Of a stretch of DNA of 39,694 nt, positions 4,464-23,946 are shown in pieces. The stretch spans positions 1 through 39,694 of the forward strand of contig JAHEII010000001.1 in the NCBI GenBank assembly GCA_024639485.1, written 5' to 3'. Source of the stretch: Alphaproteobacteria bacterium. GTDB taxonomy: Bacteria > Pseudomonadota > Alphaproteobacteria > Puniceispirillales > UBA1172. The notes below the pieces were generated by a model. It saw only the letters and a program-made list of their open reading frames with translations. It did no database searches and was not told where the DNA came from. Position numbers and translations under genes: made by a program. Numbering within the stretch: the first letter of the stretch is position 1; each line of letters opens with the position of its first letter.

Positions 4464-4492
4464 TTGGCGAAAAAGTGAAAACCTGTTAACCT
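4464..4492 (+). promoter_or_regulatory. candidate promoter of the ridA-like operon
   Basis: TTGGCG at 4464-4469 and TAACCT at 4487-4492 are separated by 17 bases and lie 44 bases before the chosen start of the ridA-like gene. Both boxes deviate from consensus, so this is a weak pattern match. The MarR-type motif found elsewhere in the window is absent here. Confidence 0.3.
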
Positions 4493-4535
4493 TTCGGCAG
4501 TGACGATAGATAACAACATCCTGAATGAGGACATT

Positions 4536-4922
4536 ATGAAAACTGTCATTGGTGAGCCGTTAGTTATTAACGGACGGACATTGTCTTTATCACGCGCTAT
4601 CAGAGCAGGTGATTTTGTCTATTTAACCGGCCAGATTCCTATGCAGGATGGGGCGGTCATGACTCACGGCACAATAGAAGACCAGACCCGTGTTGTTCTG
4701 GATGCTATCACCGAAACGCTACATCTGGCTGATTGCGATTTGCCGGATGTGGTAAAAGCTATGGTATGGTTGCGTGACCGTGCTGATTTTCCGGGATTTG
4801 ATGCCGTTTATGCTGATTATTTTCCACAAGACCCGCCCGCACGTTCCGCTGTAATTAGTGAGCTATTGGTCGATGTTCGGGTTGAGGTTGAGGTTGTTGC
4901 CTATCGGCCGCTACCGGCTTGA
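4536..4922 (+). CDS. RidA family (YjgF/Rid) enamine/imine deaminase
   Basis: Rid proteins hydrolyse reactive enamines and imines to carbonyl compounds and ammonium in the cytoplasm. At 128 residues this one has the normal length. It shows the family pattern: LSLSRAIRAGDFVYLTGQIP near the N-terminus, then VVLDAITETLHLADCDLPDVVKAMVWLRD, and a C-terminal PARSAVISELLVDVRVEVEVVAY strand region with the Arg of PARSAV expected to bind the substrate carboxylate. The ATG at 4536 has GAGG at 4527-4530. A GTG at 4500 in frame is less likely. It is followed after 12 bases by an alpha/beta hydrolase and then by a PF06684 protein, so it belongs to a three-gene unit. Here it may clear an enamine formed when a reduced N-heterocycle is opened, which is an inference. 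Confidence 0.88.
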   Translation: MKTVIGEPLVINGRTLSLSRAIRAGDFVYLTGQIPMQDGAVMTHGTIEDQTRVVLDAITETLHLADCDLPDVVKAMVWLRDRADFPGFDAVYADYFPQDPPARSAVISELLVDVRVEVEVVAYRPLPA

Positions 4923-4934
4923 CGGTATCATAAC

Positions 4935-5732: not shown

Positions 5733-5776
5733 TCACCGCATCTGACAAACTTTACAAAGGAAAAGGAGATTACATC

Positions 5777-6379
5777 ATGGAACCACAAATCAGAAAAATT
5801 GTGACTTACAAAGAAATCATCACATCTGATGGTGGCAAAGAAGCAGAACAGCCGCTGGTGCTGTTCGGTGCTGCCGCCGTCATAAAAAACCCCTGGGCAG
5901 GCCGTGGTTTTGTTGAGGACTTAATGCCGGAAATCAGAGTATTTGGCCCTAAAATGGGACAAATCCTGACGGATCAGATGCTAGAGCTTGGCGGTGGTGG
6001 CGATGCTATCGAAGCGCTTGGAAAGGCATCCATGGTTGGGCTGGACGGTGAGCTGGAACATGCTTCGGCTATTATCCATACCGTTAATTATGGCAATGTT
6101 CTGCGTAAAGCTGTTGGCGGCACGGCCTATCTGGGCTTTACCAGCACAAGAGGCCCCGGCAATACCCAGCTTAATATTCCGCTAATGGATAAAAATGATA
6201 CTGGCCGGCGGTCACATTATCTGACGGTTCAGATGCATATTCATGATGCACCGGCTGATCAGGAATTGATTGTTGCTTTTGGCGGGTCAACTGGTGGCCG
6301 TCCCCATCACCGTATTGGTGATCGTTATTCTGATCTGGCCGCGATAGGTGCTGATCTGGATAATCCGGCTGGCGTTTAA
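5777..6379 (+). CDS. amino acid synthesis family protein (PF06684), paralogue 1
   Basis: A member of the PF06684 'amino acid synthesis' family (formerly DUF1185). The family label is historical and the reaction is not established to my knowledge. The 200-residue protein shares with the second copy (12005-12586) the patterns NP(W/F)AG, DQMLELGG/DELIDALGG and the block GKA/S..GLDGELEHA followed by a His. The terminal portion keeps GGRPHHRIGD, matching GGRIHHRMGG of the other copy. These conserved Asp-Gly-Glu, His and His-His sites look like a metal or active site. A good ribosome site (AAGGAG, 5763-5768) precedes the ATG. It closes the ridA-like unit and is followed by a strong terminator. Confidence 0.85.
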   Translation: MEPQIRKIVTYKEIITSDGGKEAEQPLVLFGAAAVIKNPWAGRGFVEDLMPEIRVFGPKMGQILTDQMLELGGGGDAIEALGKASMVGLDGELEHASAIIHTVNYGNVLRKAVGGTAYLGFTSTRGPGNTQLNIPLMDKNDTGRRSHYLTVQMHIHDAPADQELIVAFGGSTGGRPHHRIGDRYSDLAAIGADLDNPAGV

Positions 6380-9403: not shown

Positions 9404-10393
9404 ATGCGGGCATTATCTGATGACCGAATACTGGATTTGGCGGTCGAATGGCATCAATCAGGGCATGATCTGGCTATCGCTATTGTTATTCAGACATGGG
9501 GATCATCCCCCCGGCCAGCCGGTAGCGTCATGATTATCCGTGATGACGGCCACATAGAAGGTTCAGTATCCGGCGGCTGTGTCGAAAGCGCCGTGATGCA
9601 AGCCGCTAATGACGTTATGATTAACGCCACTGCAACACAGCTTAATTTTGATGTCGCGGACGAAGACGCATGGCAAGTCGGGTTATCTTGTGGCGGCGCC
9701 ATATCGGTTTGGATATGCGCCAGCACCGCCAAGACCAGTCATATGGCTGATTTGTTTGTCTATATCAAAACGCAATTCGCTCAACAGCAATCGGTGGTGA
9801 TTGACTGTCATATCGACCAGCACATGATGACCATTGCCAGAACAGATCAGCCTGCCAACACATTATCCGGTGATGGCACATGTTTTCGTCTATCCGTTGA
9901 CCCCCAACCCCGGCTTTATATTATTGGTGCCGTGCATATTAGCCAGCATCTGGCACCAATGGCGATGGCGGCAGGGTTTGATGTCAACGTCATTGACCCC
10001 CGCATCAGTTTTATAAATGAAGCCCGTTTTCCGGATACAACGCTGATCAAAGATTGGCCAGATGATATTCTTGATGCGGCGGCATTAGATCATATGTCAG
10101 CTGTCGTAACGCTAACTCATGATCCGAAACTGGATGATGCTGCCTTGCGGATAGCGTTGCACCGCCCTGTATTCTATATCGCCAGTCTGGGCAGTCGCCG
10201 CACGCATGCCAAACGGTGCGACCGATTAAAACAGGATGGCTTTACCGATGAACAACTGGCGCGGATAAGCGCACCAGCAGGATGTGATATCAAGGCCAGA
10301 ACGCCAGCGGAAATTGCTGTATCCATTCTGGCTGAGCTGATCGCGATACGCCGTGGGGCTGTGTCTGTATCTGCTGGTATGATGGGTGATTAA
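9404..10393 (+). CDS. XdhC/CoxI family molybdoenzyme maturation protein
   Basis: XdhC-type proteins bind the molybdenum cofactor and promote its sulfuration and insertion into xanthine-dehydrogenase-family enzymes. This 329-residue copy has both usual parts. The N-terminal XdhC/CoxI region contains WGSSPRPAGSVMII and GSVSGGCVESAV (about 31-65, including the conserved Cys). The C-terminal Rossmann-like region begins RLYIIGAVHIS near residue 170 and includes LTHDPKLDDAAL. Usual members have GAGHxA in the Rossmann motif; GAVHIS here is a slight variant. It overlaps the mocA-like gene. The pair most plausibly serves the Mo hydroxylase encoded at 14973-17732, the only such enzyme in the window. 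Confidence 0.92.
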   Translation: MRALSDDRILDLAVEWHQSGHDLAIAIVIQTWGSSPRPAGSVMIIRDDGHIEGSVSGGCVESAVMQAANDVMINATATQLNFDVADEDAWQVGLSCGGAISVWICASTAKTSHMADLFVYIKTQFAQQQSVVIDCHIDQHMMTIARTDQPANTLSGDGTCFRLSVDPQPRLYIIGAVHISQHLAPMAMAAGFDVNVIDPRISFINEARFPDTTLIKDWPDDILDAAALDHMSAVVTLTHDPKLDDAALRIALHRPVFYIASLGSRRTHAKRCDRLKQDGFTDEQLARISAPAGCDIKARTPAEIAVSILAELIAIRRGAVSVSAGMMGD

Positions 10394-11036
10394 GGACATG
10401 CGTAATATTGGCGGAATCCTGTTGGCGGCCGGACAATCAACCCGCATGGGACGCAAAAACAAACTCCTTATGCCTGTGGATCACACATCCGAGCCCATGA
10501 TCCGGATAGCGGCAAAAACCATGCTGGACAGCCAGCTGGATCAGTCCATGATTATTCTTGGGCATGAAGCCGGACACCTTGCCGATGCGATATCGGATTT
10601 ACCCATAGCACAACATGTTAATCCGAATTATGCCAAGGGCATGAGCCAGTCTATTTGTCATGGGCTAGACCGGATCGGTGATCATGTCACCGATGTCATG
10701 ATTCTGCTTGCTGATATGCCCAATATCACGGCGCAAATGATCAATGCGCTTTATCAGCATCACATATCTGCCGACAACCCTGACCATTCCATCACCTTAC
10801 CGGTGGTAAAATCAAAAACCCGGCAACCGCGCCCTGCTAATCCGGTGATATGGGGGAAGTCCTTTTTGCCGCTTTTGCGCCAGATCACAGGCGATAAAGG
10901 CGGCAGGGATATCATTACATCACACCCGCATGCTGTTAATCCGCTTGCTATAAATGATGACAGATGCTTTCTTGATGCAGATACTATTGATGATCTGGCC
11001 ATTATATCTGAGCACCGCCAACCAAGAAGAATGTGA
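10386..11036 (+). CDS. MocA-like molybdenum cofactor nucleotidyltransferase
   Basis: Nucleotidyltransferase of the MobA/MocA fold, which joins CMP to molybdopterin to give the cytosine-dinucleotide cofactor used by xanthine-oxidase-family enzymes. Visible are the nucleotide-binding signature GGILLAAGQSTRMGRKNKLL near the N-terminus and the metal-binding ILLADMPNI around residue 108. Length (216) fits. It may start at the GTG at 10386, overlapping xdhC by eight bases, or at the ATG at 10398, where the AAGGA site would be only one base away. I keep the GTG. A 48-base spacer separates its stop from the first bases of the next regulatory palindrome's flank. Confidence 0.85.
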   Translation: MIKDMRNIGGILLAAGQSTRMGRKNKLLMPVDHTSEPMIRIAAKTMLDSQLDQSMIILGHEAGHLADAISDLPIAQHVNPNYAKGMSQSICHGLDRIGDHVTDVMILLADMPNITAQMINALYQHHISADNPDHSITLPVVKSKTRQPRPANPVIWGKSFLPLLRQITGDKGGRDIITSHPHAVNPLAINDDRCFLDADTIDDLAIISEHRQPRRM

Positions 11037-11144: not shown

Positions 11145-11924
11145 ATGAGCTTTACCTGTCCTGATTCTGCTTTTTCAGAAACCGTCACCGAAGTTGAACA
11201 TTATACAGACCGGCTGTTCCGGTTTCGGCTGACCCGTCCGGCCAGCTTTCGCTTTCGGTCGGGGGAGTTTGTGATGATCGGACTGCCCGGCGAAAAACCG
11301 GTATGGCGCGCTTATTCCATTGCTAGCCCATCATGGGATGAAACGATTGAGTTTTATTCAATTAAAGTTCCCGGCGGGCCGTTAACCGAACATCTACAGA
11401 ATATCAAGATTGGCGATAATGTCTGGTTCCGCAAAAAGCCAACCGGCACTTTGGTGCTTGATGCGCTTCTGCCCGGCAAGCGGCTATGGATGATATCCAC
11501 CGGCACTGGTTTTGCGCCTTTTGCTTCGCTTATTCGTGATCCCGAAGCATATGAAAAATTCGAATCCCTGATTGTGACCCATACTTGTCGTGAGGCCGCT
11601 GAGTTGAGCTATTCGATCAATACCGTTGCTGCAACGAAAGCTGATCCACTGGTTGGTGAGCTGGCTGACCGGCTTCACCTAGTAGCCACTACCACGCGCG
11701 AAGACACGTCATTCATGGGACGCATTACCGATTTAATGCAAAACGGTAAATTATATACGCATCTGGGCGTGCCGCCGCTTGATCCCGAATATGATCGCGT
11801 CATGATCTGTGGATCAATGGCCATGCTGAAAGACGTTAAAGCCATACTGGACAATGCGAATTTCACCGAGGGATCAAACAGTATGCCCGGTCAATATGTG
11901 GTTGAACGGGCATTTGTTGATTAA
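11145..11924 (+). CDS. fpr: ferredoxin-NADP+ reductase
   Basis: FAD enzyme that exchanges electrons between NADPH and ferredoxin or flavodoxin. The 259-residue protein is of the bacterial Fpr class. It shows the FAD-binding RAYSIAS motif (55-61), VPGGPLTEHL (75-84), the NADP-binding STGTGFAPF (118-126) and a C-terminal VVERAFVD, where the last residues stack on FAD in related enzymes. A GAGAG site precedes the ATG. It is a monocistronic unit under operator A, which carries the same motif as the promoter of the Mo-hydroxylase/reductase operon. Its likely role here is to supply reduced ferredoxin to the 6-hydroxynicotinate-reductase-like enzyme. No ferredoxin gene is seen in the window. Confidence 0.92.
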   Translation: MSFTCPDSAFSETVTEVEHYTDRLFRFRLTRPASFRFRSGEFVMIGLPGEKPVWRAYSIASPSWDETIEFYSIKVPGGPLTEHLQNIKIGDNVWFRKKPTGTLVLDALLPGKRLWMISTGTGFAPFASLIRDPEAYEKFESLIVTHTCREAAELSYSINTVAATKADPLVGELADRLHLVATTTREDTSFMGRITDLMQNGKLYTHLGVPPLDPEYDRVMICGSMAMLKDVKAILDNANFTEGSNSMPGQYVVERAFVD

Positions 11925-12004: not shown

Positions 12005-12586
12005 CTAGCGCAGTCCATCTTCGCCTTTGATATCCTCAACCGCTAATCCGCCCATGCGGTGATGAATACGGCCGCCTTTAGTCATGGCCAGACAGAACAT
12101 GATCTCACCCCGGCGCGGCGAATCAGCTAGCCGGACTTCCATGGCGTCAAAATGGCTTCTGACATAGGCGGCATTAATATGGCCTAGCGGGATATCAATA
12201 GCACATCCGGCGCCACCCACCTTCATCGAAGATGGAACAATAGCCTTGGCTTCGCCAAGTCTTTCCCGCATCGCATAGCCACCCGGCACATGCCAGAGCG
12301 CGGTATGTTCCAGCTCACCATCTTCGCCAGCAAGTCCAGCCTTACCATAGCCATCAATGCCATCAAGACCGCCAAGCGCATCAATCAGTTCATCTGTCAT
12401 CATCAACCCCAGTGGCTTCAGATCATCCATCACCGATTGCAAATCTTCGTGATATTTACCAGCAAACGGATTGCTTACCACCGCAACCATCGCCGCACGC
12501 ATCCGTGGTGTTTGCGGGGCGGGGCCGCCTTCGTGAAAAATCGTTTCCAGAAAAAGCTGTGTTTTACGAATAGGGAAGCTTGTCAT
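12005..12586 (-). CDS. amino acid synthesis family protein (PF06684), paralogue 2
   Basis: Second PF06684 protein, 193 residues, clearly homologous to the copy at 5777-6379 but diverged. Shared features are NPFAGKY, the DELIDALGG helix, GKAGLAGEDGELEHTALWH and the C-terminal GGRIHHRMGG. It is the last gene of the five-gene minus-strand operon, and its start overlaps the UPF0280 stop by four bases (ATGA), so its product is needed together with the reductase and hydroxylase. The reaction is not established. Two paralogues in one pathway could form a heteromer or act on successive intermediates; both ideas are speculation. Confidence 0.87.
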   Translation of the reverse strand: MTSFPIRKTQLFLETIFHEGGPAPQTPRMRAAMVAVVSNPFAGKYHEDLQSVMDDLKPLGLMMTDELIDALGGLDGIDGYGKAGLAGEDGELEHTALWHVPGGYAMRERLGEAKAIVPSSMKVGGAGCAIDIPLGHINAAYVRSHFDAMEVRLADSPRRGEIMFCLAMTKGGRIHHRMGGLAVEDIKGEDGLR

Positions 12587-13503
12587 GTTATTTTCTCCAT
12601 TAGTTGCATCGCTTCAAGTTGTATCGCTTCATGTTTTATTTGGCCGGTATTGAGATACTGATCCAGTCCGACCACCCGTATATGATCTTTGACCCTGATC
12701 AATGCACCGGCCACCGGTTTTAGTGCCATAATCGCTTTTGCTTCGTTTTCACCGGCATCTAATGCCCATTCTATTGCCGCCGGCGATAACATCCCGACCG
12801 ATGTGACAATGGGCTGATCACCCAGATCGCTTTCTGGCAATAACGCATCTGCAGGAACGCGCGTCACCGCCTGCATATCCGGATGATCAGACGGTAAATC
12901 AGCTGGCAAATTAACCGCATTAGCAATCATGGTTGCCGCCGCGTCTGCATTGGCCGCATGGTCAGCTAGCACAACAACCGCATCTGCTATACCAAGCGAA
13001 AAACTGCGCCCGCCATATCCGGATGTGGCCATACCCCGACAATCGCTGTCATGGGATATGGTGCATCGTGCCGTGTCCAGATTGGCCATGATTGCCGTTG
13101 CGTCATATCCATCTGCCAGCCAGAACGCAATATCACCGCCATTATTCACGCTTGCCTTGGTCAAGCCGGATTCAGCGGTCATGGCCGCCAGCACATGATC
13201 GGCAACCGCGCCTGCGACAGCCGCCATTGGTGTGATAAACCGGTTTTCATAGCCGCTAGTTGCAGCAGCCATGCGGCGTGCCACCGGATGCCGATAATGA
13301 TCGGGGGATTGCGTTTTCTGGCGCAAAGATGGCAATTCAACCACTAACCGTTCCAGCAGATATTGCATCGCCTGTATCGCTTTCCGGTAGGCACGGTCTG
13401 CGGATACGCCTTCTGCTTTTATGATCAGATCAATCGGTCCATGCAATAGATGAAGCCGGTTATCGGGCGGCAACCATGCGGCTTGGATAGAAGATACAGA
13501 CAT
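12583..13503 (-). CDS. UPF0280 family protein (ApbE-like fold)
   Basis: A conserved uncharacterised family related by fold to ApbE flavin transferases. The 306-residue protein has the typical start (IQAAWLPPDNRLHLLHGPIDLII), then PVARRMAAATSGYENRFITPMAAVAGAVADHVL, the NNGGDIAFWL segment (about 140-150) and a GMATSGYGGRSFSLGIADAVVVLA block (about 180-205) that parallels the substrate-binding core of ApbE. The ATG at 13503 follows GGTGAG; a TTG two codons earlier is possible. It is 21 bases after the reductase-like gene and overlaps the PF06684 gene. In this setting it may act on the flavin or metal centre of the neighbouring reductase, but nothing in the sequence proves this. Confidence 0.87.
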   Translation of the reverse strand: MSVSSIQAAWLPPDNRLHLLHGPIDLIIKAEGVSADRAYRKAIQAMQYLLERLVVELPSLRQKTQSPDHYRHPVARRMAAATSGYENRFITPMAAVAGAVADHVLAAMTAESGLTKASVNNGGDIAFWLADGYDATAIMANLDTARCTISHDSDCRGMATSGYGGRSFSLGIADAVVVLADHAANADAAATMIANAVNLPADLPSDHPDMQAVTRVPADALLPESDLGDQPIVTSVGMLSPAAIEWALDAGENEAKAIMALKPVAGALIRVKDHIRVVGLDQYLNTGQIKHEAIQLEAMQLMEKIT

Positions 13504-13524
13504 GACCAACTCACCGGTTAATGG

Positions 13525-14976
13525 TTAATCATCATGATCAGACGATATAACAGAAAGCACCTGACTGTCTTTGGAATACTCACCACCGGTTTTGATAATA
13601 TCTGGCACCGAACGGATTTGTTCGGCATGTCCGCCCAGCGCGATATATTCATCTTTAGTTGTTGTAAATTCCAATGGTGCAACAATCGCTGGCGTTGGCA
13701 CATAACCAAACGCGTTTTCAGGCATATTCACCACATCAACCATGATTGTGATACCGCCCCCCGGCCAGATAAAGCCCTCAATGCCGCCACAAGTGACTTT
13801 TGTTTGACCTGACTGCACGGATTCGGTTAACCGGATTGGATTTGTTGTCACTCCGGCGCGCAATGAGCCGCCAGCTCCCCCCATAAACATCACCGTACAA
13901 AGCGCCGGTTCACAATTTTCAGCAATCCGATCAACACTGTCTTGCAAATCTTTTGGCATGGGATGCGGCTGTGGTACCAGATCATCATCAAGAATATAAT
14001 ATCCGGAATGTTCACCCGTTGTTGATACCATCAGCATGGTCAATCCCGGCCGTGCGCCTTTGGCTGGCCGCCATGCGCCCAGAATCTTGAGCGGGTCTTC
14101 CAGATCTGTTCCGCCCCAGCCCAGTCCCGGTTCAGCCACTTGAAAATACCGGCCGGGGGTTGATCTACGGCCATTTATAGTGATGCCTGTATCCGGCCAA
14201 CCCAGCACTTTGCCAGCCTGATGTTCAGACACAACGCCGGTAATGTGATCATCAACGACAACAACCTCATCAACATGACCAAGCCATTGTGACGCAAACA
14301 TTCCGATAGTTGCTGATCCGCACCCAACCCGCATGCGGAGTTCTGTTTTGCCATCAACGACAGGGGCTTTGCCGGATTCAACAATGACGGTTGATCCGCC
14401 ATCAATGCTTAATTCAACCGGCTCTTTATTACATAGCTTCATCAGCGCATCACATGTCACCCGCCCCTCGGCTTTGCTTCCGCCAGTCAGATGATCAACA
14501 CCGCCCAATGACAACATTTGTGAGCCATATTCGCTAGTCATGACTAACCCCACCGGCTCACCATTGGCGCGAATAACCGCGCCTTCCTTACCTAAATGCC
14601 GGTCTGTATCAATTTTGACCTTCACCCCGCAATATGAAAAAATAGCTTCGGTTACGACAGTAACAAAATCCGCGTTATCATGATGCTGGCCAACAATGAA
14701 CGGTGCCGGTTTATAATCCGGATAAGTAGTACCCGCCCCAATGGCCGTGACAAAAGCGCCATTTTCCTGATGCAGACTGTCATCCCATTCTGCCCCCAGA
14801 AATGGTTTTATGGCATCGCCTGCTTCTATCCGGCGATCCAGAATGGTTAACGGATCAAGCCTGATAATCTGGCCATCCTTATTGGCGTAACGGTCACAAG
14901 CACCGGAATTGCCGTCAGCGATATAACACATCACCGGACAGGCATCGCATCTGATTTTTTCTGTTGTTTTGCTCAT
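13525..14976 (-). CDS. 6-hydroxynicotinate reductase-like Fe-S protein
   Basis: Resembles 6-hydroxynicotinate reductase (Hnr, EC 1.3.7.1), which in clostridial nicotinate fermentation reduces 6-hydroxynicotinate to 1,4,5,6-tetrahydro-6-oxonicotinate with ferredoxin. The 483-residue protein begins with a cluster-type Cys set, Cys10-x2-Cys13-x3-Cys17-x9-Cys27 (IRCDACPVMC then GNSGACDRY). Glycine-rich segments follow (MRVGCGSATIGMF about 215-227; MFMGGAGGSLRAGVTTNPIR about 364-382; CGGIEGFIWPGGGITIMVD about 396-414). Its start overlaps the Mo hydroxylase stop by four bases, matching the order hydroxylase then reductase in the nicotinate pathway. Recognition is from memory of the family; the true substrate may be another hydroxylated N-heterocycle. 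Confidence 0.75.
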   Translation of the reverse strand: MSKTTEKIRCDACPVMCYIADGNSGACDRYANKDGQIIRLDPLTILDRRIEAGDAIKPFLGAEWDDSLHQENGAFVTAIGAGTTYPDYKPAPFIVGQHHDNADFVTVVTEAIFSYCGVKVKIDTDRHLGKEGAVIRANGEPVGLVMTSEYGSQMLSLGGVDHLTGGSKAEGRVTCDALMKLCNKEPVELSIDGGSTVIVESGKAPVVDGKTELRMRVGCGSATIGMFASQWLGHVDEVVVVDDHITGVVSEHQAGKVLGWPDTGITINGRRSTPGRYFQVAEPGLGWGGTDLEDPLKILGAWRPAKGARPGLTMLMVSTTGEHSGYYILDDDLVPQPHPMPKDLQDSVDRIAENCEPALCTVMFMGGAGGSLRAGVTTNPIRLTESVQSGQTKVTCGGIEGFIWPGGGITIMVDVVNMPENAFGYVPTPAIVAPLEFTTTKDEYIALGGHAEQIRSVPDIIKTGGEYSKDSQVLSVISSDHDD

Positions 14977-17732
14977 TCCGCCGCCTCATGCGTGGTGTTG
15001 TTAGCCGTGATTGCCGCAAGCACGCGGTGCGGCACAGCAGGAGTTTGATATATTCTTGCGCCACCTGTTGCATCGGTAATGGCGTTCAGAATAGCAGGCG
15101 CAGTCGGGATCAACACATGTTCCCCCAATCCTTTAACTCCCATCGGGCCTTCGGGGTCGGGGACTTCTATCAGATGATATTCAATGTCCGGCATATCACC
15201 AATAGAAGGGATCAGATAATCATGCAGATTTTCTGTTCGGCCGGGGATATATTCTTCCATCAACGCCATGCCCAACCCTTGTGCTATACCGCCATCAATC
15301 TGGCCTTCTGCCAGCAATGGATTAACCACTTTGCCCAGATCATGCGCCGCCGAAATGTTCAGCACTTTCACCGTGCCTAATTGCATATCCACCTCAACCA
15401 CTGCCGCTTGCGCGCCAAATCCATAAACTGCATAAGGCTTGCCCTGCCCATATTCATCCAGTTCTTCAGTTGGCGGGTTATAGGTTTCTTCGGCCATCAG
15501 AACATAGCCGTAATCATTCACCGGCAATGGATTAAGCGCGATATCATTTTGCTTATCGCCATGACTAACCGTGATGATGCCCTGTTGCATTTCAATCACC
15601 GCGTCATCACCCAGATTGCTTAGCCGTAAAATCTGACCACGCAGGGCTTGCCCTGCCAGCATGGCGGCTTTGCCGGTAATAAACGTCTGGCGGGACGCTG
15701 AAGTTTTGCCGCAATCCGGCGTGATCGCCGTATCACCACCAACAAGCGTTATATCCGCTAGCGGAATACCCAGTGCATCCGCACAAATCTGCGTGATAAC
15801 GGTATTTGATCCCTGACCAATATCTGCCGCACCCTGATGCAAGACAACCGCGCCTTCGGATGTAATGCCCAACCGGATTGTTGACGGGTTGGGAAGCGCG
15901 GTATTCCCGCAACCATACCAGCAAGACGATACGCCAATACCACGTTTTTTTCTGGTATTTCTGGCATTAAAATCCGTGATCTGTTCCTGATGGCGTTGCC
16001 AGAATGGTTCTAACGCGGCCAGACATTCATCAATACCAACCGCGCTTAACGTCTGATTACAAATTGTCCGGTCGCCATTTTTCAAGGCATTGAGCCGCCG
16101 GAAGGCCAGCCTGTCCATATTACATTTTTGCGCCAGTTCATCATAAAGCGCTTCTTGAATAATGGTTGACTGCGGCACACCAAAACCGCGAAACGCACCT
16201 GATGGTGGGCCGTTGGTATGAATGGCTCTGCCCTTGGCCAGATAATGTGGCGTTTTATACGGGCCAGAGGCGTGAATAGGCACCCGACTCGCCACGGTAG
16301 GCCCCCAGCTTGCATATGCGCCAGTATTAAAATCCCCTGTAAATTCCATGGCGGCGATACGGCCACTTGCATCCACCGCAATTCTTGCCCGCATATCCCC
16401 CGGATGGCGTTTAGTTGTCGACATCATGGATTCCTGACGCGAATACACTATCCGGCATGGCAGGCCGGTTTTGAGCGCCACCAGACCAAGCAATGGCTGA
16501 ACCGATACATCCAGCTTTGAGCCAAAGCCGCCACCAGTTGCCGAAGGAATAATCCGAACCTTTTCTTGCGCCAGACCAAGCACCTTGGCCGTATCATCAC
16601 GATCCATAATAGGGGCTTGCGTGCAGGCCTGAATGACAACAGTATCGCCATCCATCCAAGCGGCACCAGCTTCGGGTTCGATATAAGCATGTTCCACATA
16701 ACCGGTTGAAAACGTCATTTCAGCCACATGTTCTGCTGTGGCAAAACCGGCATCAATATCACCATGTTTGACCACACCGGTAATCAGCAGGTTTTGATCA
16801 CGATGTGGATGGATTTGTAACGCCCCATCCTTTATCGCTGACTGAACATCCATGATGGGTTGCCGTTCTGTCCATGAAATCGGAAAGTCGGATATATCCT
16901 GTGATGCGATATCCTGCGAATAGCCAACAATCAATGCTACCGCTTCCCCTTTGAATCTGGTTTCATCACTGGCTAGTGCTGGTTGATCCGCCATGGGCGG
17001 GATCACGCCAAACCTGTTATCACCATCAATATCACTTGCCAGAAACACATGACTGATCTGATCATGTTTCGCTGTCCATGCCGCTACATCACCGATAGAA
17101 AACTGCGCGGAATGATAAGGCGAGCGAAGCACCCGCACATAAAGCGCATCTGCTGGCCATTCATCAGCACCGAATATTTCGGTTCCATTAAGTTTCGGAA
17201 TGCCATCCAGCCGTTCTACTCTGGCGCCAACAGCAATATTGCGATCAGGCATAGGTGCCGCTGGTTTCTGATTAGCGGCATCCATCACCGCATCAATAAT
17301 TTTGGCATAACCGGTACAGCGGCATAACACACCGCCAAGCGCGTCTTCGACTTCGCCTCGGTCAGGCGCTTTATTCCGCCGGATCAGCGGCGTTGCCGCC
17401 ATCAACATGCCGGGCGTGCAAATCCCGCATTGTGCCGCCCCATGCCGGCTGAATGATTGCTGTAATAATGATAGCGTATCCCCATCCGCCAGACTTTCAA
17501 CCGTTTCAATGTGACAGCCATCTGCTTTGGCCGCCGTCATCAGGCATGAACAGGCCGGCTCACCATCCACCAGAACAGTGCAAGCACCACAATCACCGGC
17601 ATTACAGCCGACTTTTGTTCCCATCAGATGCAATTCTTCGCGCAAAACTTCGCTTAATCGCATTCCAGCCGGACAAGTGACAGCTTCCACCTTGCCATTT
17701 ACCGTTAACGTGAATTGGTTTTGGTCGTTCAT
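14973..17732 (-). CDS. xanthine dehydrogenase-family Mo hydroxylase, fused 2Fe-2S and molybdopterin subunits
   Basis: Water-derived hydroxylation of an N-heterocycle at molybdenum, with electrons leaving through two 2Fe-2S clusters to the FAD subunit. The 919-residue protein fuses a small-subunit domain (1-155) to a large-subunit domain (about 175-919). Cluster ligands are Cys43, Cys48, Cys51, Cys63 (CNAGDCGACTV) and Cys102, Cys105, Cys137, Cys139 (CGICTPGM, CRCTGY). The large domain has GGFGSKLDVSVQ, GAFRGFGVPQ and a late KGLGEHVL with the active-site Glu. CoxL's AYxCSFR is absent, so it is not CO dehydrogenase. The ATG at 17732 overlaps the FAD-subunit stop and has GGAGAG upstream. Nicotinate, hydroxypyridine or purine-like substrates are all possible. 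Confidence 0.92.
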   Translation of the reverse strand: MNDQNQFTLTVNGKVEAVTCPAGMRLSEVLREELHLMGTKVGCNAGDCGACTVLVDGEPACSCLMTAAKADGCHIETVESLADGDTLSLLQQSFSRHGAAQCGICTPGMLMAATPLIRRNKAPDRGEVEDALGGVLCRCTGYAKIIDAVMDAANQKPAAPMPDRNIAVGARVERLDGIPKLNGTEIFGADEWPADALYVRVLRSPYHSAQFSIGDVAAWTAKHDQISHVFLASDIDGDNRFGVIPPMADQPALASDETRFKGEAVALIVGYSQDIASQDISDFPISWTERQPIMDVQSAIKDGALQIHPHRDQNLLITGVVKHGDIDAGFATAEHVAEMTFSTGYVEHAYIEPEAGAAWMDGDTVVIQACTQAPIMDRDDTAKVLGLAQEKVRIIPSATGGGFGSKLDVSVQPLLGLVALKTGLPCRIVYSRQESMMSTTKRHPGDMRARIAVDASGRIAAMEFTGDFNTGAYASWGPTVASRVPIHASGPYKTPHYLAKGRAIHTNGPPSGAFRGFGVPQSTIIQEALYDELAQKCNMDRLAFRRLNALKNGDRTICNQTLSAVGIDECLAALEPFWQRHQEQITDFNARNTRKKRGIGVSSCWYGCGNTALPNPSTIRLGITSEGAVVLHQGAADIGQGSNTVITQICADALGIPLADITLVGGDTAITPDCGKTSASRQTFITGKAAMLAGQALRGQILRLSNLGDDAVIEMQQGIITVSHGDKQNDIALNPLPVNDYGYVLMAEETYNPPTEELDEYGQGKPYAVYGFGAQAAVVEVDMQLGTVKVLNISAAHDLGKVVNPLLAEGQIDGGIAQGLGMALMEEYIPGRTENLHDYLIPSIGDMPDIEYHLIEVPDPEGPMGVKGLGEHVLIPTAPAILNAITDATGGARIYQTPAVPHRVLAAITANNTTHEAAE

Positions 17733-18604
17733 GCCTTGCTCTCCGGTTGTCTGGTTGCGGATAGAAGACAATGATCAATCGCCGCATGCAGAAGCGTGGT
17801 TGCCGCCTGAATACGATAGCTGGCTGATCCGCGCACATCATCAATCGGGTTAATGACCGCCTCAACATCCGATGCCGCAACCAGATCAGACGCGGATAAT
17901 CCGGATGCCGGATGGATTTCTGTTCCTATTAGCGCTTGTTCTACCGCGTGCAATCGTACCGCAACCGGACTACAAGACCCTAGCGATAACGCGGCTTGGG
18001 TGATGCGGTTATCAGTAATCACCATTCTGGCGGCAGCCATGACAATAGAAATGATCAGATATTTTCTTGTCCCCAGTTTCTCAAACGCAGACACCCCGCT
18101 TTCGGCTGATTTGGGAATCATGATAGCGGTCATGATTTCATCTGGCTGGCGCATGGTTTTGCGTGGGCCTAACAGAAAATCGGATAAAAGCATCTGCCGC
18201 CTGCCAGCAGTTGAGGTCAGCTCAACCGACGCATCCAGTGCTAATAAACACGGAATACTATCAGCGGCCGGGGAAGCGTTACATAAATTACCGGCAATTG
18301 TTCCCACATTCTGAATCTGGATAGAGCCAATTTCCCGCGCCGCCAGTTTCAGCATGTCATAAGCTGGCGGCAGATCCGCCCGAACAATATCTGTCCATGT
18401 TGTTGCACCACCAATACGCCGGATATCCCCCATATCGGTTATTCCGCGCATATCCTTGATACCCGTTACATCCAGCACATGACCAGTCATTTGCGGGGCT
18501 GTGGTTAGCGGAAATAAATCCGTACAACCCGCCGCAATGACAGCAGCGGTTGACGAAGATAGAGCATCTAGCGCATCTTCGATTGTTGTAGGCCGGTAAT
18601 ACAT
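17729..18604 (-). CDS. FAD-binding subunit of the Mo hydroxylase
   Basis: Medium subunit of a xanthine-dehydrogenase-type enzyme that carries electrons from the 2Fe-2S clusters via FAD to the acceptor. The 291-residue protein starts with the family pattern MYYRPTTIEDAL and shows the FAD sites AAGCTDLFPL (about 25-34), GGATTWTDI and REIGSIQIQNVGTIAGNLCNASPAADSIP (about 92-120). The C-terminal domain follows, ending before the coupled Fe-S/Mo gene. ATGs at 18604 and 18619 and a GTG at 18631 are in frame. I chose 18604 because homologues begin MYYRP, though none has a good ribosome site. It is the first gene of the five-gene operon and lies directly downstream of operator C. Confidence 0.9.
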   Translation of the reverse strand: MYYRPTTIEDALDALSSSTAAVIAAGCTDLFPLTTAPQMTGHVLDVTGIKDMRGITDMGDIRRIGGATTWTDIVRADLPPAYDMLKLAAREIGSIQIQNVGTIAGNLCNASPAADSIPCLLALDASVELTSTAGRRQMLLSDFLLGPRKTMRQPDEIMTAIMIPKSAESGVSAFEKLGTRKYLIISIVMAAARMVITDNRITQAALSLGSCSPVAVRLHAVEQALIGTEIHPASGLSASDLVAASDVEAVINPIDDVRGSASYRIQAATTLLHAAIDHCLLSATRQPESKA

Positions 18605-18637
18605 GTTATCTGAAAGCATGAGGATCAACACAAACTG

Positions 18638-18653: not shown

Positions 18654-18701
18654 TTTGCTATTTTGCTAACAGCCTGTCAATATGGATTTAAGGATGCCGC
18701 T

Positions 18702-19175
18702 ATGAAGAAAATGCCACTTTCCGTTTTTGATACAGACCATCATGTTGGTGATACCATGGTGACGGCAGCGGATTATCAACTGGAAGATCAGGTTGGCTTT
18801 ATCATGCGATGCGTCAATCAGCGGCATTTATCGATATTCAGCCGTCTAATCCCTGAGCTAACCCCGACACAGTTTTCCGCATTAGCCAAGCTTTGCGCCA
18901 CCGGTCAGGCATCCCAGAATGAGCTTGGGCGAATGATTGCCATTGATGCCGCCACCATAAAAGGCGTGGTAGACCGCTTAAAGCATCGCGGGCTGATTTC
19001 ATCCGAAAGCCAGCCATCCGATTTACGGCGACTGATTCTGAAACCAACAGAAGAAGGCCGGCAATTATTTCATCAGATCAGCGCGGCCGCGCGACAGGTA
19101 TCCGAAGACACGTTAAAACCGCTGAGCGAAAAAGAAAAACATGTGTTTATGAATTTGCTTGATAAACTGCGCTAA
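18702..19175 (+). CDS. MarR family transcriptional regulator
   Basis: Ligand-responsive winged-helix DNA-binding protein, 157 residues. The recognition region is ARTGQASQNELGRMIAID-like: ALAKLCATGQASQNELGR then MIAIDAATIKGVVDRLKHRGLI (about 62-100). The beta wing SESQPSDLRRLILKPTEEG follows, and a C-terminal dimerisation helix completes it. The ATG at 18702 has AAGGA at 18690-18694; a TTG at 18663 in frame lacks one. It is divergent from the hydroxylase operon, with operator C between them. It is the only transcription factor in the window and therefore the prime candidate for binding the four GTRYACAAAY sites, presumably releasing them when the pathway substrate or an intermediate is present. 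Confidence 0.93.
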   Translation: MKKMPLSVFDTDHHVGDTMVTAADYQLEDQVGFIMRCVNQRHLSIFSRLIPELTPTQFSALAKLCATGQASQNELGRMIAIDAATIKGVVDRLKHRGLISSESQPSDLRRLILKPTEEGRQLFHQISAAARQVSEDTLKPLSEKEKHVFMNLLDKLR

Positions 19176-19195: not shown

Positions 19196-19891
19196 TTACA
19201 CGCCAATATATTTTTTCAGTAAATCCGGGTTATCACGCAGATGATCAGCTGACATGACATCGCGATTCATGCCATTTTCAAGGAACATCACTTTATCAGC
19301 AATGGACAGAACCGCATCAACGCGCTGTTCCACCAGTAAAATACCAACACCCTGTTTTTTTAGCGCAACCACCGTATCACGGATCAGCGCAATCATGGAT
19401 GGTTGCAAGCCTTCGGTGGGCTCATCCAGCAATAGCAATTGTGGTTCAAGACATAATGCCCGTCCAGTAGCCAGCATTTGCTGTTCGCCGCCAGATAATG
19501 TATTTGCCCGCTGATCAAGCCGTTCAGCCAGTCGGGGAAACATGCCCAGCACCTTATCAAGGGTGGCCGACGATTTATTACCAGCCATTAATCCGATTTC
19601 CAGATTTTCTGCTACGGTAAGTTCAGAAAACAGCCGCCTGCCTTGCGGGACATAACCTATTCCGCATCCGGCAATTTTATGTGGGGCAATGGTGGTTAAA
19701 TCTGTTCCGTTAAATATAATCTGCCCCTGACTGGCCTTGAGTAATCCCATAATTGTTTTCATCATGGTTGTTTTGCCGGCACCATTGCGGCCAAGAATAC
19801 AGACAATCTCGCCGGCATTAAGGCTAAGCGAAACCTCTCTGAGCACCTGCGCGCCCGCATATCCTGACGATACGGATGTCAGCTCAAGCAT
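19196..19891 (-). CDS. livF: branched-chain-type ABC transporter ATP-binding protein
   Basis: Second ATPase of a LivFGHMK-type importer, 231 residues. Walker A is GRNGAGKTT, the signature is LSGGEQQMLATGRAL and Walker B is LLLLDEPTEGL, the LivF form. The ATG at 19891 lies inside the livG end (8-base overlap) with GGGAG upstream; the longer frame to 19924 is rejected. It is the last gene of the transport unit and is convergent with marR, with 20 bases between the stops and no clear terminator hairpin. Confidence 0.93.
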   Translation of the reverse strand: MLELTSVSSGYAGAQVLREVSLSLNAGEIVCILGRNGAGKTTMMKTIMGLLKASQGQIIFNGTDLTTIAPHKIAGCGIGYVPQGRRLFSELTVAENLEIGLMAGNKSSATLDKVLGMFPRLAERLDQRANTLSGGEQQMLATGRALCLEPQLLLLDEPTEGLQPSMIALIRDTVVALKKQGVGILLVEQRVDAVLSIADKVMFLENGMNRDVMSADHLRDNPDLLKKYIGV

Positions 19892-20618
19892 GGGTTTCTC
19901 CCAGATAGGCAATTTGCACCTCACGATTGGCGCGAATATCGGCTGGTGTTCCTGTTGCCAGTACCTTGCCCAGATTAAGCACCGTGATCTGATCGGCTGT
20001 ATCCATCACCACATTCATATTATGTTCGATTAGCAATATGGTCATATCGCCACCAAGCTCACGGATCAATTTTACAAAACCGGCAATTTCACTATCTGCC
20101 AACCCCTGAGTTGGCTCATCCAGAATAAGCAATTGCGGATGCTGGCTAATCCCCATGGCAATTTCCAGCAAGCGCTGATGCCCATAGCTCAAATCGCCTG
20201 CCATCTGATCCATGCGATCCGCCAGCCCGACTTTTTCCAGCGATTCTTCTATGGTGTTTTGAATCGCCCGTTCATCATTGCCCCATCGCCATGATGTAGC
20301 TAGCCGGACATTATCCTGAAGGCTCAAACGGCCATAAATAGACGTGATCTGAAACGTATAGGCAATGCCCTGACGGATGCGTTTATGCGCTGGCAGTGCT
20401 GTTACGTCCTTGCCATCAAACATGATGCGCCCTGCTGATACCGGTATCCGGCCACATAACATGCCAACAAAAGTAGACTTGCCAGCACCATTAGGCCCGA
20501 TAATCGCCCTGATCTCACCTCTGGGGACGGCGAAATCCACTTGATCTACGGCTATCAGACCCCCAAAATGGCGACTGATTCCATCTGCGCTAATATGTGG
20601 TGTTGTCATGACAGCCAT
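19884..20618 (-). CDS. livG: branched-chain-type ABC transporter ATP-binding protein
   Basis: First ATPase of the importer, 244 residues. Walker A is GPNGAGKST, the signature is LSYGHQRLLEIAMGI and Walker B is LLILDEPTQGL, all of LivG type; IEHNMNVVMDTADQITVLNLGKVLATGTP closes the domain. The ATG at 20618 has GGAAGG upstream and overlaps the livM end by 13 bases. An in-frame ATG at 20609 has no ribosome site. Confidence 0.93.
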   Translation of the reverse strand: MAVMTTPHISADGISRHFGGLIAVDQVDFAVPRGEIRAIIGPNGAGKSTFVGMLCGRIPVSAGRIMFDGKDVTALPAHKRIRQGIAYTFQITSIYGRLSLQDNVRLATSWRWGNDERAIQNTIEESLEKVGLADRMDQMAGDLSYGHQRLLEIAMGISQHPQLLILDEPTQGLADSEIAGFVKLIRELGGDMTILLIEHNMNVVMDTADQITVLNLGKVLATGTPADIRANREVQIAYLGETHA

Positions 20619-21568
20619 GGCACTACCTTCCGCCGGAATTCACCCACCAATCCTTGTGGCAGGAACAGTGTTAACAACACTAACGCCAGACCAGCAATCA
20701 ACATATATGCCGTGGTAAAGGAACTAGACAGATCAATCAGATAAAACATGAACAATGTTCCAACAAATGGCCCCAACGCTGTTCCGGCACCGCCAAGCAG
20801 AACCCAGAGCAATGGGAAAATGGAATACTGAACAGACGCAAAAGTCGCACCAGCATAGCCAAACAGCAACGCATATGCCGCCCCTGCCAATGCCGCCATT
20901 GTGCCAGACATGATCACCGCCATCCATTTATGGAAATGAACATCATAGCCTAACATATGGGTGCGTTCCTCATTCTCGCGGATAGCAATCATGACGCGAC
21001 CAAACCGGCTATGGACAAGCCGGATTGTCAGCAACAGGCAGATAGAAAACAGAATAAGCGCCGCGTTATAACGGTTTACAGGCTGGCTTAAATCAAAACC
21101 TGCCATCACCCGTTCTGCCTGTTTTATGACAAAGCCCTCATCACCGCGCGTCCATTCGCCAAAATACAGAATGGTCAGAAAACCGGCCTGTGCAAACATC
21201 AGCGTCACAATCATGAAAGACACTCCGCTTGTCCGCAAAGCAAGAAACCCGATGCCGGCCGATACCACCACCCCTGCCGCTATCGCGGAAATCAGCGCTG
21301 GTTCCGGTGTCCAGCCAAGATGCACCATGGGCAAGCCCATGCCATACATACCAGCGGCAAAAAACATCGCATGGCCAAGGCTTAACAAACCAGTATAGCC
21401 AAACAGAATATTATATCCCATCGCATAGCATGCCAGCACCATAATCCGCGCCAGATTGCCATGATGATAGGCAGGCAGAATAAATTGAAGGATAAATAAT
21501 GCCCCTATCAAACCCAGATGAAAATAAAGCGATTTTCTGGCATCTGTCATTCCGGCTTTTTCTATCAT
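20606..21568 (-). CDS. livM: branched-chain-type ABC transporter permease
   Basis: LivM-type inner-membrane permease of 320 residues. The diagnostic early segment GYNILFGYTGLLSLGHAMFFAAGMYG lies at about 53-78. The cytoplasmic coupling loop SRFGRVMIAIRENEERTHMLGYDV follows (about 187-210), and the end is LFGYAGATFASVQYSIFPLLWVLLGGAGTALGP with further helices. The start overlaps the livH stop (ATGA). With LivH it forms the membrane channel for the solute delivered by the Tat-exported binding protein at 22568-23863. Confidence 0.93.
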   Translation of the reverse strand: MIEKAGMTDARKSLYFHLGLIGALFILQFILPAYHHGNLARIMVLACYAMGYNILFGYTGLLSLGHAMFFAAGMYGMGLPMVHLGWTPEPALISAIAAGVVVSAGIGFLALRTSGVSFMIVTLMFAQAGFLTILYFGEWTRGDEGFVIKQAERVMAGFDLSQPVNRYNAALILFSICLLLTIRLVHSRFGRVMIAIRENEERTHMLGYDVHFHKWMAVIMSGTMAALAGAAYALLFGYAGATFASVQYSIFPLLWVLLGGAGTALGPFVGTLFMFYLIDLSSSFTTAYMLIAGLALVLLTLFLPQGLVGEFRRKVVPWLS

Positions 21569-22491
21569 GGGTTATGTTTCCCCAAAAGCCCGGATGGCCG
21601 GAAAATCAGCACAAATGTTACTATCAGCGTGGCAATAATCTTGGCCAGTGTGGGCGTGAAGAAAACGGAAATAAGTCCATCGCTCAACCCGATAAGCACC
21701 GCCGCAACAACCGTTCCGGCCAGACTGCCCAGTCCACCGATAATGACAACAATGAATGATAACAAAAGCGGATCATGTCCCATCAGATAATGCGCTTGCT
21801 GAATAGGAACAATGAGCACGGCGGCAAGCGCCGCTAGCCCGGCTCCTAGCCCGAATACCAGCGCATAAACCCGATCAACATTAATGCCATAAGCCTGTGC
21901 CACATCACGATCAAGTTGCGTGGCACGCATGATTAACCCAATCCGTGTTCGCGTCATCAGCACCCAGATAGCCAAGAGCAGAATAACCGCAAACCCGATA
22001 ACAGCCAGTTTATATGTTGTCGTACCAAGCCCCCATGGCCAGTACATGGATAAACCGCTTTCTGTCCATTCAAACCATGGTATGGAAATGCGCTGATTAA
22101 ACGGCGGCTCAACCGGTCTGGCGTTTGAGCCATACGTCATCAGCGTGACTTGCTGAATAATATACAGCAAGCCAATAGTCGCCACAATCGTGCGCTCAGG
22201 GTCATATTTGATACGCTTTAAAATGGTGGCATCGGCAACAACAGCCAGACTACCGACCAGCACTGGTGCTATAAATAATGCCGCAACAAATGATACTGCG
22301 GGATGTCCGCCAATCATATCGGCCACAAACCATGCCAGCACCGCGCCTAGCATAAAAAACTCACCATGCGCGACATTAACCACGCGCATAACGCCAAACA
22401 CCAGACTAAGCCCAACCGCCATCAGCGCCAACACGGCGGCGGTTACTAATCCTTCAATGCTACCGAGTATTAAATAAGGTGCAAGTTCCAT
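21565..22491 (-). CDS. livH: branched-chain-type ABC transporter permease
   Basis: LivH-type permease, 308 residues. The start region GLVTAAVLALMAVGLSLVFGVMRVVNVAHGEF is diagnostic. The coupling loop TRTRIGLIMRATQLDRDVAQAYGINVDRVYAL lies at about 180-212. It is separated from the upstream binding-protein gene by a stem-loop (22521-22557), after which this gene and the three following ones are tightly overlapped. The ribosome site is poor. Urea, branched amino acids, small amides and heterocyclic acids are all known cargos of this transporter class; the island suggests the last. Confidence 0.93.
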   Translation of the reverse strand: MELAPYLILGSIEGLVTAAVLALMAVGLSLVFGVMRVVNVAHGEFFMLGAVLAWFVADMIGGHPAVSFVAALFIAPVLVGSLAVVADATILKRIKYDPERTIVATIGLLYIIQQVTLMTYGSNARPVEPPFNQRISIPWFEWTESGLSMYWPWGLGTTTYKLAVIGFAVILLLAIWVLMTRTRIGLIMRATQLDRDVAQAYGINVDRVYALVFGLGAGLAALAAVLIVPIQQAHYLMGHDPLLLSFIVVIIGGLGSLAGTVVAAVLIGLSDGLISVFFTPTLAKIIATLIVTFVLIFRPSGLLGKHNP

Positions 22492-22514
22492 GATTTACAT
22501 GATCTATGAATAAA

Positions 22515-22557
22515 ACTGAAAAAACCTTCCCCTGTTTATGCAAAAACAGGGGAAGGT
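22515..22557 (-). terminator. stem-loop attenuator between the binding-protein and permease genes
   Basis: A perfect 14-bp stem, ACCTTCCCCTGTTT (22524-22537) with AAACAGGGGAAGGT (22544-22557), and a six-base loop. On the minus strand it is followed by TTTT, CAG and another TTTT. It lies 11 bases after the stop of the binding-protein gene and 33 bases before the livH start. It is likely a partial terminator or 3'-end stabiliser that keeps binding protein in excess over permease. Confidence 0.85.
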
Positions 22558-22567
22558 ATCAATGTGA

Positions 22568-23863: not shown

Positions 23864-23891
23864 ATTTTCCTCCCAATCAAACAACATATTA

Positions 23892-23919
23892 TTAGCTGTA
23901 AGAACATATGTGTACAAAC
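23892..23919 (-). promoter_or_regulatory. operator D and promoter of the ABC transporter operon
   Basis: The motif GTGTACAAAC occupies 23910-23919, the third GTRYACAAAY copy by coordinate. Read on the minus strand it contains TTGTAC, followed 17 bases later by TAATAA, a plausible -35/-10 pair about 30 bases before the ribosome site of the binding-protein gene. The regulator would therefore overlap the -35 box. Confidence 0.55.
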
Positions 23920-23946
23920 AGTCTGCCCATAAAAAACCCTGTTTGT

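What the first reader, a model, noticed from the sequence alone, without database searches (positions are those of the whole stretch)
12005..14976. Reductase, UPF0280 and PF06684 genes form a coupled block of unknown chemistry
The reductase-like, UPF0280 and PF06684 genes are separated by 21 and -4 bases. Two of the three families have no established reaction. Tight coupling with an Fe-S reductase suggests that UPF0280, which has an ApbE-like fold, modifies the reductase cofactor, and that PF06684 acts on the reduced ring. Both roles are hypotheses that would give functions to orphan families.
Basis: inference. Interest (0 to 1): 0.65.

Follow-up and report, generated by a model that had tools for sequence, protein, structure and literature searches.

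The report
Vitamin B3-type ring-breakdown operon, partner genes
This stretch of a marine SAR116 bacterium carries the core of a known nicotinate (vitamin B3) breakdown route in which the ring reductase is always escorted by the same poorly understood protein (UPF0280), and in which a different ring-opening enzyme appears to have been swapped in, which gives testable jobs to neglected protein families.

Summary
The block is real. MoFAD–Mo-hydroxylase–reductase–UPF0280–PF06684 form one five-gene run (18631 to 12005, minus strand). The 'orphan' reductase is the NCBI-annotated 6-hydroxynicotinate reductase family (Hnr). A published nicotinate cluster already noted two unknown companion genes.

Co-occurrence is extreme. 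Of 289 alphaproteobacterial genomes, 51 have the reductase; all 51 have UPF0280 (directly adjacent in the 45 on one contig) and 44 have PF06684. UPF0280 has the ApbE fold (Z about 15) but lacks ApbE's catalytic-His loop and lysine, and the reductase has no ApbE target motif, so flavinylation stays open but is weaker than stated. The own genome and 25 other reductase genomes have no canonical ApbE. UPF0280 (COG2122) is not a pure orphan: it is genetically tied to homocysteine synthesis with DUF39/ferredoxin, but DUF39 is absent from all 51.

New here: every reductase genome carries either an enamidase ortholog (21) or a HyuAB lactamase (30), never both. On the reductase tree the two swap at least 4–6 times. 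This window is the HyuAB type. PF06684 splits into reductase-, enamidase- and trigonelline-type clades, so it probably acts after ring reduction, not on the reductase.

The parts
13525..14976 (-). 6-hydroxynicotinate-reductase-type Fe-S reductase (Hnr family), 483 aa; eight conserved Cys (10, 13, 17, 27, 116, 175, 219, 355)
12583..13509 (-). UPF0280/COG2122 protein, ApbE-like fold, obligate companion of the reductase
12005..12586 (-). PF06684 (AA_synth, ex DUF1185), core clade directly downstream of UPF0280
14973..17771 (-). Xanthine-dehydrogenase-family Mo-hydroxylase, [2Fe-2S] and Mo domains fused; expected ring hydroxylase (nicotinate-dehydrogenase-like role)
17729..18631 (-). FAD subunit of the Mo-hydroxylase; first gene of the operon
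18663..19175 (+). Divergent MarR-type regulator, conserved in 54 of 80 loci
19196..23989 (-). Branched-chain-type ABC uptake system (LivFGMHK-like), conserved in about 44-59 of 80 loci; candidate substrate importer
25532..27604 (+). HyuA (hydantoinase/oxoprolinase A, ATP-binding motifs intact): half of the proposed substitute ring-opening lactamase
27601..29355 (+). HyuB (hydantoinase B, Asp-His-Asp-His metal site intact): second half of the proposed ring-opening lactamase
11145..11924 (+). Ferredoxin-NADP reductase-like flavoprotein, likely electron supply for the reductase; within 10 kb in 16 of 80 loci
9404..11036 (+). XdhC and MocA-type molybdenum-cofactor maturation genes for the Mo-hydroxylase
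5777..6379 (+). Second PF06684 copy, of the trigonelline-type (TgnF-like) clade, beside an alpha/beta hydrolase (4935-5732) and an aldehyde dehydrogenase (2891-4432)

Best explanation
The block is the hydroxylation-plus-ring-reduction core of the reductive nicotinate-type pathway. A Mo-hydroxylase makes 6-hydroxynicotinate (or a close analogue). The Fe-S reductase, fed by ferredoxin/FNR, reduces the ring to the cyclic enamide lactam 1,4,5,6-tetrahydro-6-oxonicotinate. A lactamase opens the ring: here HyuAB with ATP, in other bacteria the enamidase. UPF0280 is a dedicated helper of the reductase; my best guess is that it is needed to build or load the reductase's cofactor (flavin, or sulfur/Fe-S), with flavin attachment as one option. 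PF06684 acts after ring reduction, on the ring-opened formyl/enol(amine) product. Shown here: operon, co-occurrence, fold, conserved residues, the enamidase/HyuAB alternation and its repeated swaps. Inferred: substrates, reactions, helper role and the PF06684 step.
For: Reductase relatives are named 6-hydroxynicotinate reductase. The Bradyrhizobium-type cluster carries an ortholog of the solved E. barkeri enamidase 2vun (E 5e-109). PMC3511419 reports a 42%-identical E. barkeri Hnr homolog in a strain that grows on nicotinate, in a cluster conserved in Azorhizobium with two unknown genes. UPF0280 is present in 51 of 51 reductase genomes whichever ring-opening enzyme is used, and also in the 7 that lack PF06684, so its job belongs to the reductase, not to ring opening or PF06684. 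Enamidase (21) and HyuB (30) together cover all 51 reductase genomes without overlap and swap at least 4-6 times on the reductase tree. HyuA/HyuB keep the ATP motifs and metal tetrad of ATP-dependent caprolactamase. The own genome has no enamidase. Helper role: ApbE fold, no canonical ApbE in 26 of 51 reductase genomes including the own, no DUF39 in any. Ferredoxin link: FNR and, in some loci, 2-oxoacid:ferredoxin oxidoreductase beside the reductase. PF06684: separate clades beside the reductase, beside enamidases without any reductase, and beside luciferase-type monooxygenase/hydrolase/aldehyde dehydrogenase genes.
Against: No biochemistry on any of these proteins. The E. barkeri Hnr sequence could not be compared directly. 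The window has no enamidase, and its Mo-hydroxylase is only 34-42% identical to the Bradyrhizobium one, so the substrate may not be nicotinate itself. UPF0280 lacks the ApbE His loop. HyuAB could act on another lactam in the same cells. One named locus (L065, a MAG contig) has the reductase without UPF0280 next to it, and a Hydrogenophaga plasmid has UPF0280 without the reductase.
Confidence: 0.6

Rival explanations
1. UPF0280 is a genuine flavin transferase that attaches FMN covalently to the reductase.
For: ApbE fold with Z 14-15 to ApbE/Ftp/FmnB; GGD, TSG and ADxxxT motifs kept; 26 of 51 reductase genomes lack canonical ApbE; from memory, E. barkeri Hnr was reported to contain covalently bound flavin (Alhapel et al. 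2006, not held here).
Against: The loop with the H257-equivalent histidine of V. cholerae ApbE is absent (18-residue gap); the AKG lysine is an invariant Ala (A99); PF02424 scores only 8.7 bits (cut-off 25.6); none of 110 reductases has D-x-x-[ST]-G-A-[ST]; [quoted passage not shown]
Confidence: 0.27
2. UPF0280 delivers sulfur or assists Fe-S assembly on the reductase, as COG2122 is thought to do for DUF39/NIL-ferredoxin in homocysteine synthesis.
For: COG2122 mutants in Desulfovibrio are rescued by methionine and have the same fitness profile as DUF39 (PMC5764234); MA1715 is described as a sulfur-trafficking protein (PMC12068725); both partner systems are Fe-S/ferredoxin linked; the reductase has 8 conserved Cys; the Hydrogenophaga UPF0280 sits beside Rieske and PDR/VanB genes.
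Against: UPF0280 has no invariant Cys; no DUF39 in the 51 genomes, so the partner differs; the persulfide role is itself unproven.
Confidence: 0.27
3. UPF0280 is a catalytic or structural subunit of the reductase complex, or catalyses a small extra step such as tautomerisation of the reduced ring.
For: Strict 1:1 pairing and adjacency in 51 genomes, 79 of 80 loci and 26 of 26 plasmids; retained metal/nucleotide-type motifs.
Against: UPF0280 proteins serve elsewhere without this reductase (PMC5764234); E. barkeri Hnr is described, from memory, as purified alone.
Confidence: 0.25
4. The pathway's substrate is not nicotinate but another N-heterocycle, and the HyuAB-type clusters differ from the enamidase type in substrate, not only in the ring-opening enzyme.
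For: A different Mo-hydroxylase subtype from the Bradyrhizobium cluster; no enamidase in the own genome; neighbouring amidase and trigonelline-type genes.
Against: The reductase tree mixes the two types repeatedly, with the window's HyuAB clade nested among enamidase-type reductases, and the reductase sequence is highly conserved (about 60-72% across the class). A Neorhizobium cluster has hyuAB with a gene annotated nicB.
Confidence: 0.3

Closest known systems
Reductive nicotinate pathway of Eubacterium barkeri / Azorhizobium caulinodans (ndh-hnr-ena cluster)
   Same: Mo-hydroxylase, 6-hydroxynicotinate-reductase family, ABC importer and the two companion genes
   Different: No enamidase in the window or own genome; HyuAB instead; Mo-hydroxylase fused and of another subtype
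ApbE/Ftp/FmnB flavin transferases (PF02424)
   Same: Fold of UPF0280, GGD/TSG/ADxxxT motifs
   Different: No H-I-[ID]-P-x-x-G loop, no AKG lysine, far below the Pfam cut-off
COG2122/UPF0280 of homocysteine synthesis (MA1715, DvMF_0044; structure 2o34 DVU1097)
   Same: Same family, Z 20.1 to 2o34
   Different: Partner is the Hnr-type reductase, not DUF39 + NIL/ferredoxin (0 of 51 genomes)
PF06684 proteins BB2672 (3byq), SPO0826 (2qtp), TgnF, HcdD
   Same: Sequence family; Bacillus chorismate mutase-like hexamer (PMC2954203)
   Different: The core copy is a separate clade tied to hnr-UPF0280; the window's second copy is in the trigonelline-type clade
ATP-dependent caprolactamase CapAB (6yra) and related lactamases
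   Same: HyuA/HyuB homologs with intact ATP and metal sites
   Different: Substrate inferred to be the reduced hydroxynicotinate lactam, untested

Membership tests
6-hydroxynicotinate reductase (Hnr) | Sequence homology to E. barkeri Hnr | tested here: inconclusive
   Only by annotation of relatives and a published 42% identity for a Bradyrhizobiaceae homolog; the Hnr sequence itself was not available
6-hydroxynicotinate reductase (Hnr) | Operon with a Mo-hydroxylase and ring-opening enzyme | tested here: met
   Mo-hydroxylase in 77 of 80 loci; enamidase or HyuB in 51 of 51 genomes
6-hydroxynicotinate reductase (Hnr) | Fe-S clusters | tested here: met
   8 Cys conserved in at least 98% of 110 relatives, four of them in an N-terminal CxxCx3Cx9C motif; the metal content is inferred
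6-hydroxynicotinate reductase (Hnr) | Covalently bound flavin | not testable with these tools
   Needs purified protein; no ApbE-type target motif seen
ApbE flavin transferase | Fold | tested here: met
   VIA Z 14-15 over about 200-216 residues to ApbE/Ftp/FmnB
ApbE flavin transferase | Mg-site ADxxxT motif and GGD, TSG motifs | tested here: met
   D126, S163, G164, D189, T193 invariant in 37 sequences, aligned to ApbE by hhalign
ApbE flavin transferase | Catalytic histidine in the H-I-x-D/N-P loop | tested here: not met
   18-residue gap in UPF0280 at that place; H257 located by wild type against H257G chains
ApbE flavin transferase | PF02424 score above cut-off | tested here: not met
   8.7 bits against 25.6
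COG2122/UPF0280 | Sequence and fold of the family | tested here: met
   NF003322 283.7 bits (cut-off 290, slightly below) and Z 20.1 to 2o34
COG2122 homocysteine system | DUF39 (PF01837) partner in the genome | tested here: not met
   0 of 51 reductase genomes; the control rings in 3 known genomes
PF06684 | Profile score above cut-off | tested here: met
   220.9 and 204.3 bits against 27
Nicotinate cluster with enamidase | Enamidase (2vun-type) present | tested here: not met
   No match in the own genome; present in 21 of 51 reductase genomes
ATP-dependent HyuAB/caprolactamase lactamases | ATP motifs in A, Asp-His-Asp-His metal site in B | tested here: met
   DVGGTFTD, DMGGTSTD, GADPGP; D, H, D, H aligned with CapB D41/H99/D102/H124
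ATP-dependent HyuAB/caprolactamase lactamases | Hydrolysis of the reduced hydroxynicotinate lactam | not testable with these tools
   Enzyme assay needed

The most novel reading that the evidence does not exclude
UPF0280/COG2122 is a general cofactor-maturation enzyme for a class of Fe-S (sulfur/ferredoxin-linked) enzymes, built on the ApbE fold but using chemistry other than classical His-dependent FMN transfer; it serves DUF39 in homocysteine synthesis and Hnr-type reductases here. In addition, HyuAB is a previously unrecognised ATP-driven replacement for enamidase in nicotinate breakdown.
Probability: 0.3. Interest if true: 0.78.

Novelty: new variant of a known kind. Interest (0 to 1): 0.55.

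Why it matters
It turns a vague 'coupled block' into three testable claims: UPF0280 is an obligate partner of the nicotinate ring reductase; enamidase and HyuAB are interchangeable ring-opening enzymes; and PF06684 works on the product side. The first could explain at once what COG2122 does in methionine synthesis of methanogens and sulfate reducers. The second would complete vitamin B3 breakdown in abundant marine bacteria that have no enamidase.

Tried and rejected
Reductase fold: AlphaFold model of moderate confidence (pLDDT 77) with no convincing PDB match (best Z 4.6), so no cofactor site could be placed; absence of a match is not evidence of a new fold. Sequence search of the PDB with the reductase gave only a chance-level IMPDH match. 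PF06684 as the ring-opening enzyme itself: rejected as the simplest reading, because it coexists with enamidase in 21 of 21 and with HyuB in 23 of 30 genomes and is missing in 7 HyuB genomes. UPF0280 as a sign of the DUF39 homocysteine pathway: rejected for these genomes. Reductase-UPF0280 fusions: long UPF0280 'ORFs' in some GC-rich loci are extensions in another frame over the reductase, not fusions. Clustering of unlabelled neighbours gave mostly spurious antisense ORFs. The E. barkeri paper, the MA1715 paper and the trigonelline paper were not held. Firmicutes relatives could not be reached.
Full report
WHAT IS THERE. The three genes exist as described. On the minus strand they are the last three of a five-gene run: FAD subunit 17729-18631, fused [2Fe-2S]/Mo-hydroxylase 14973-17771, reductase 13525-14976, UPF0280 12583-13509 and PF06684 12005-12586, with 4-base overlaps at two junctions. 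XdhC, MocA and a ferredoxin-NADP-reductase-like gene lie next to it on the other strand, and a MarR gene, an ABC uptake system and hyuA-hyuB lie upstream. The window belongs to a 1.88 Mb alphaproteobacterial assembly; among the named relatives are several SAR116 records with closely similar gene order.

WHAT THE REDUCTASE IS. It has no Pfam or NCBIfam model, but public records name its relatives '6-hydroxynicotinate reductase'. PMC3511419 describes a homolog 42% identical to E. barkeri Hnr in a bacterium that grows on nicotinate. [quoted passage not shown] Those two are most likely UPF0280 and PF06684: a betaproteobacterial plasmid annotated by its depositors shows, in order, enamidase-like amidohydrolase, ferredoxin-NADP reductase, 6-hydroxynicotinate reductase, UPF0280, two 'amino acid synthesis family' genes, an ABC transporter and a Mo-hydroxylase. 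In 110 relatives eight Cys are conserved (at least 98%; C10, C13, C17, C27, C116, C175, C219, C355), enough for two Fe-S clusters. From memory, the E. barkeri enzyme was reported with covalent flavin, one [2Fe-2S] and two [4Fe-4S] clusters (Alhapel et al. 2006); that paper is not held here.

CO-OCCURRENCE. In one even sample of 289 alphaproteobacterial genomes, 51 have the reductase. UPF0280 is found in the same 51 plus one marginal, stop-containing hit. In 45 genomes on one contig it is always directly downstream (gap between aligned segments 30-206 bases, median 92). PF06684 is in 44 of the 51 and in 19 others. In 80 named loci UPF0280 is next to the reductase in 79; the exception, L065, is a short MAG contig in which ABC genes follow the reductase instead. 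All 26 plasmids with the reductase also have UPF0280; the one extra plasmid (Hydrogenophaga) has four UPF0280 places, two of them seen in repeated units beside a Rieske protein and IS1071. The genomes are related, so p-values overstate, but 35 genera are involved.

RING OPENING IS SWAPPED. The window's genome has none. I searched the same 289 genomes for that enamidase and for the window's HyuB. Enamidase at 70% identity or more is in 21 reductase genomes and HyuB at 60% or more in the other 30; none has both and none has neither. The cut-offs were set after seeing the lists, but they fall in natural gaps (enamidase hits drop from 70% to 43%; no reductase genome lies near the HyuB boundary, the lowest being 63%). 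More distant paralogs of both families exist in some genomes. Only 1 of 238 other genomes has the enamidase and 3 have the HyuB. On a tree of 49 reductases the label changes 6 times, at least 4 being forced by well-supported branches, and the window's HyuAB clade is nested among enamidase-type reductases. So the reductase most likely makes the same kind of product in both types, and enamidase and HyuAB are alternatives for opening it. HyuA and HyuB keep the ATP motifs and the Asp-His-Asp-His metal site of ATP-dependent caprolactamase (PMC8453981), so lactam hydrolysis is plausible. I did not find this alternation described in the papers I read.

WHAT UPF0280 DOES. Its AlphaFold model (pLDDT 95) has the ApbE fold: the top 20 structural matches are 2o34 (Z 20.1, same family) and flavin transferases (Z 13.7-15.4, about 200-216 residues), well above the next group (Z 7.4). 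Profile alignment keeps NGGD, TSG and ADxxxT but shows an 18-residue gap where ApbE has its H-I-[ID]-P loop; that histidine is H257 of V. cholerae ApbE. The AKG lysine is replaced by an invariant Ala. No reductase has the ApbE target motif. Canonical ApbE is missing in 26 of 51 reductase genomes, including the own genome, and in all the other family members searched, so if a covalent flavin exists there, UPF0280 is the only ApbE-like candidate found. Against that, COG2122 (the same family) is required for homocysteine synthesis together with DUF39 and a NIL/ferredoxin protein, and a persulfide or sulfur-trafficking role was proposed (PMC5764234, PMC12068725); DUF39 is absent from all 51 genomes. 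The common theme is a helper of an Fe-S/sulfur enzyme. Because UPF0280 stays when the ring-opening enzyme changes and when PF06684 is lost, its task belongs to the reductase. I put flavin transfer, sulfur/Fe-S help and a subunit or extra-step role at about equal odds.

WHAT PF06684 DOES. It is in 21 of 21 enamidase-type and 23 of 30 HyuAB-type genomes. The tree gives a core clade next to UPF0280, a second clade made of the tandem second copies, mostly in enamidase-type clusters, a small clade directly beside enamidase-like amidohydrolases without any reductase (66-122 bases apart in five cases), and a trigonelline-type clade beside a luciferase-like monooxygenase, flavin reductase, alpha/beta hydrolase and aldehyde dehydrogenase. 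The window's second copy (5777-6379) belongs to the last clade. PMC7913881 notes that a DUF1185 protein, HcdD, is homologous to TgnF, which stimulates succinate-semialdehyde oxidation by TgnE in trigonelline breakdown, though no effect of HcdD could be shown. The nicotinate route gives 2-formylglutarate (from memory) and the trigonelline route gives succinate semialdehyde, possibly by way of a formylsuccinate-type intermediate (my inference). I therefore suggest, as inference only, that PF06684 acts on such formyl/enol(amine) acids (tautomerisation, enamine hydrolysis or decarboxylation).

VERDICT. A known kind of operon with a real, very strong and under-explained partnership, plus a newly seen swap of the ring-opening enzyme. 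Its flavinylation mechanism is possible but weakened, and its claim that the families are orphans is partly out of date.

Noticed in passing
window 2891-6379: Aldehyde dehydrogenase, alpha/beta hydrolase (PcaD-like) and a second PF06684 resemble the trigonelline (tgn) gene set found beside luciferase-type monooxygenases in other alphaproteobacteria; no such monooxygenase was identified among the annotated genes of the window.
   Followed up: partly
window 23947-25650: A 567-aa polytopic membrane protein without any Pfam or NCBIfam match, with homologs in 31 of 80 reductase loci, mostly next to the ABC transporter; unknown role.
   Followed up: partly
L138, L141 (and similar ORFs in L143, L148): Beside the reductase lie 2-oxoacid:ferredoxin oxidoreductase subunits and a pyridine-nucleotide oxidoreductase (domains checked in L141), which supports ferredoxin as the electron donor.
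   Followed up: partly
L251 (Hydrogenophaga plasmid pBPS33-1): UPF0280 without the reductase, in an IS1071-flanked unit with a Rieske protein and a PDR/VanB reductase; tblastn finds four UPF0280 places in the record.
   Followed up: partly
L065: The only named reductase locus without UPF0280 next to it: ABC transporter genes on the other strand follow the reductase directly; MAG contig, so misassembly or real loss.
   Followed up: partly
G034 (L139, L180, L181): The reductase gene is split into two overlapping reading frames (frameshift or sequencing error) in a single-contig genome.
   Followed up: no
window 6444-7886: Amidase-signature (PF01425) gene between the two PF06684 copies, rarely near the reductase in relatives (1 of 80 loci); possible nicotinamide-type or ring-opened amide hydrolase.
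   Followed up: no
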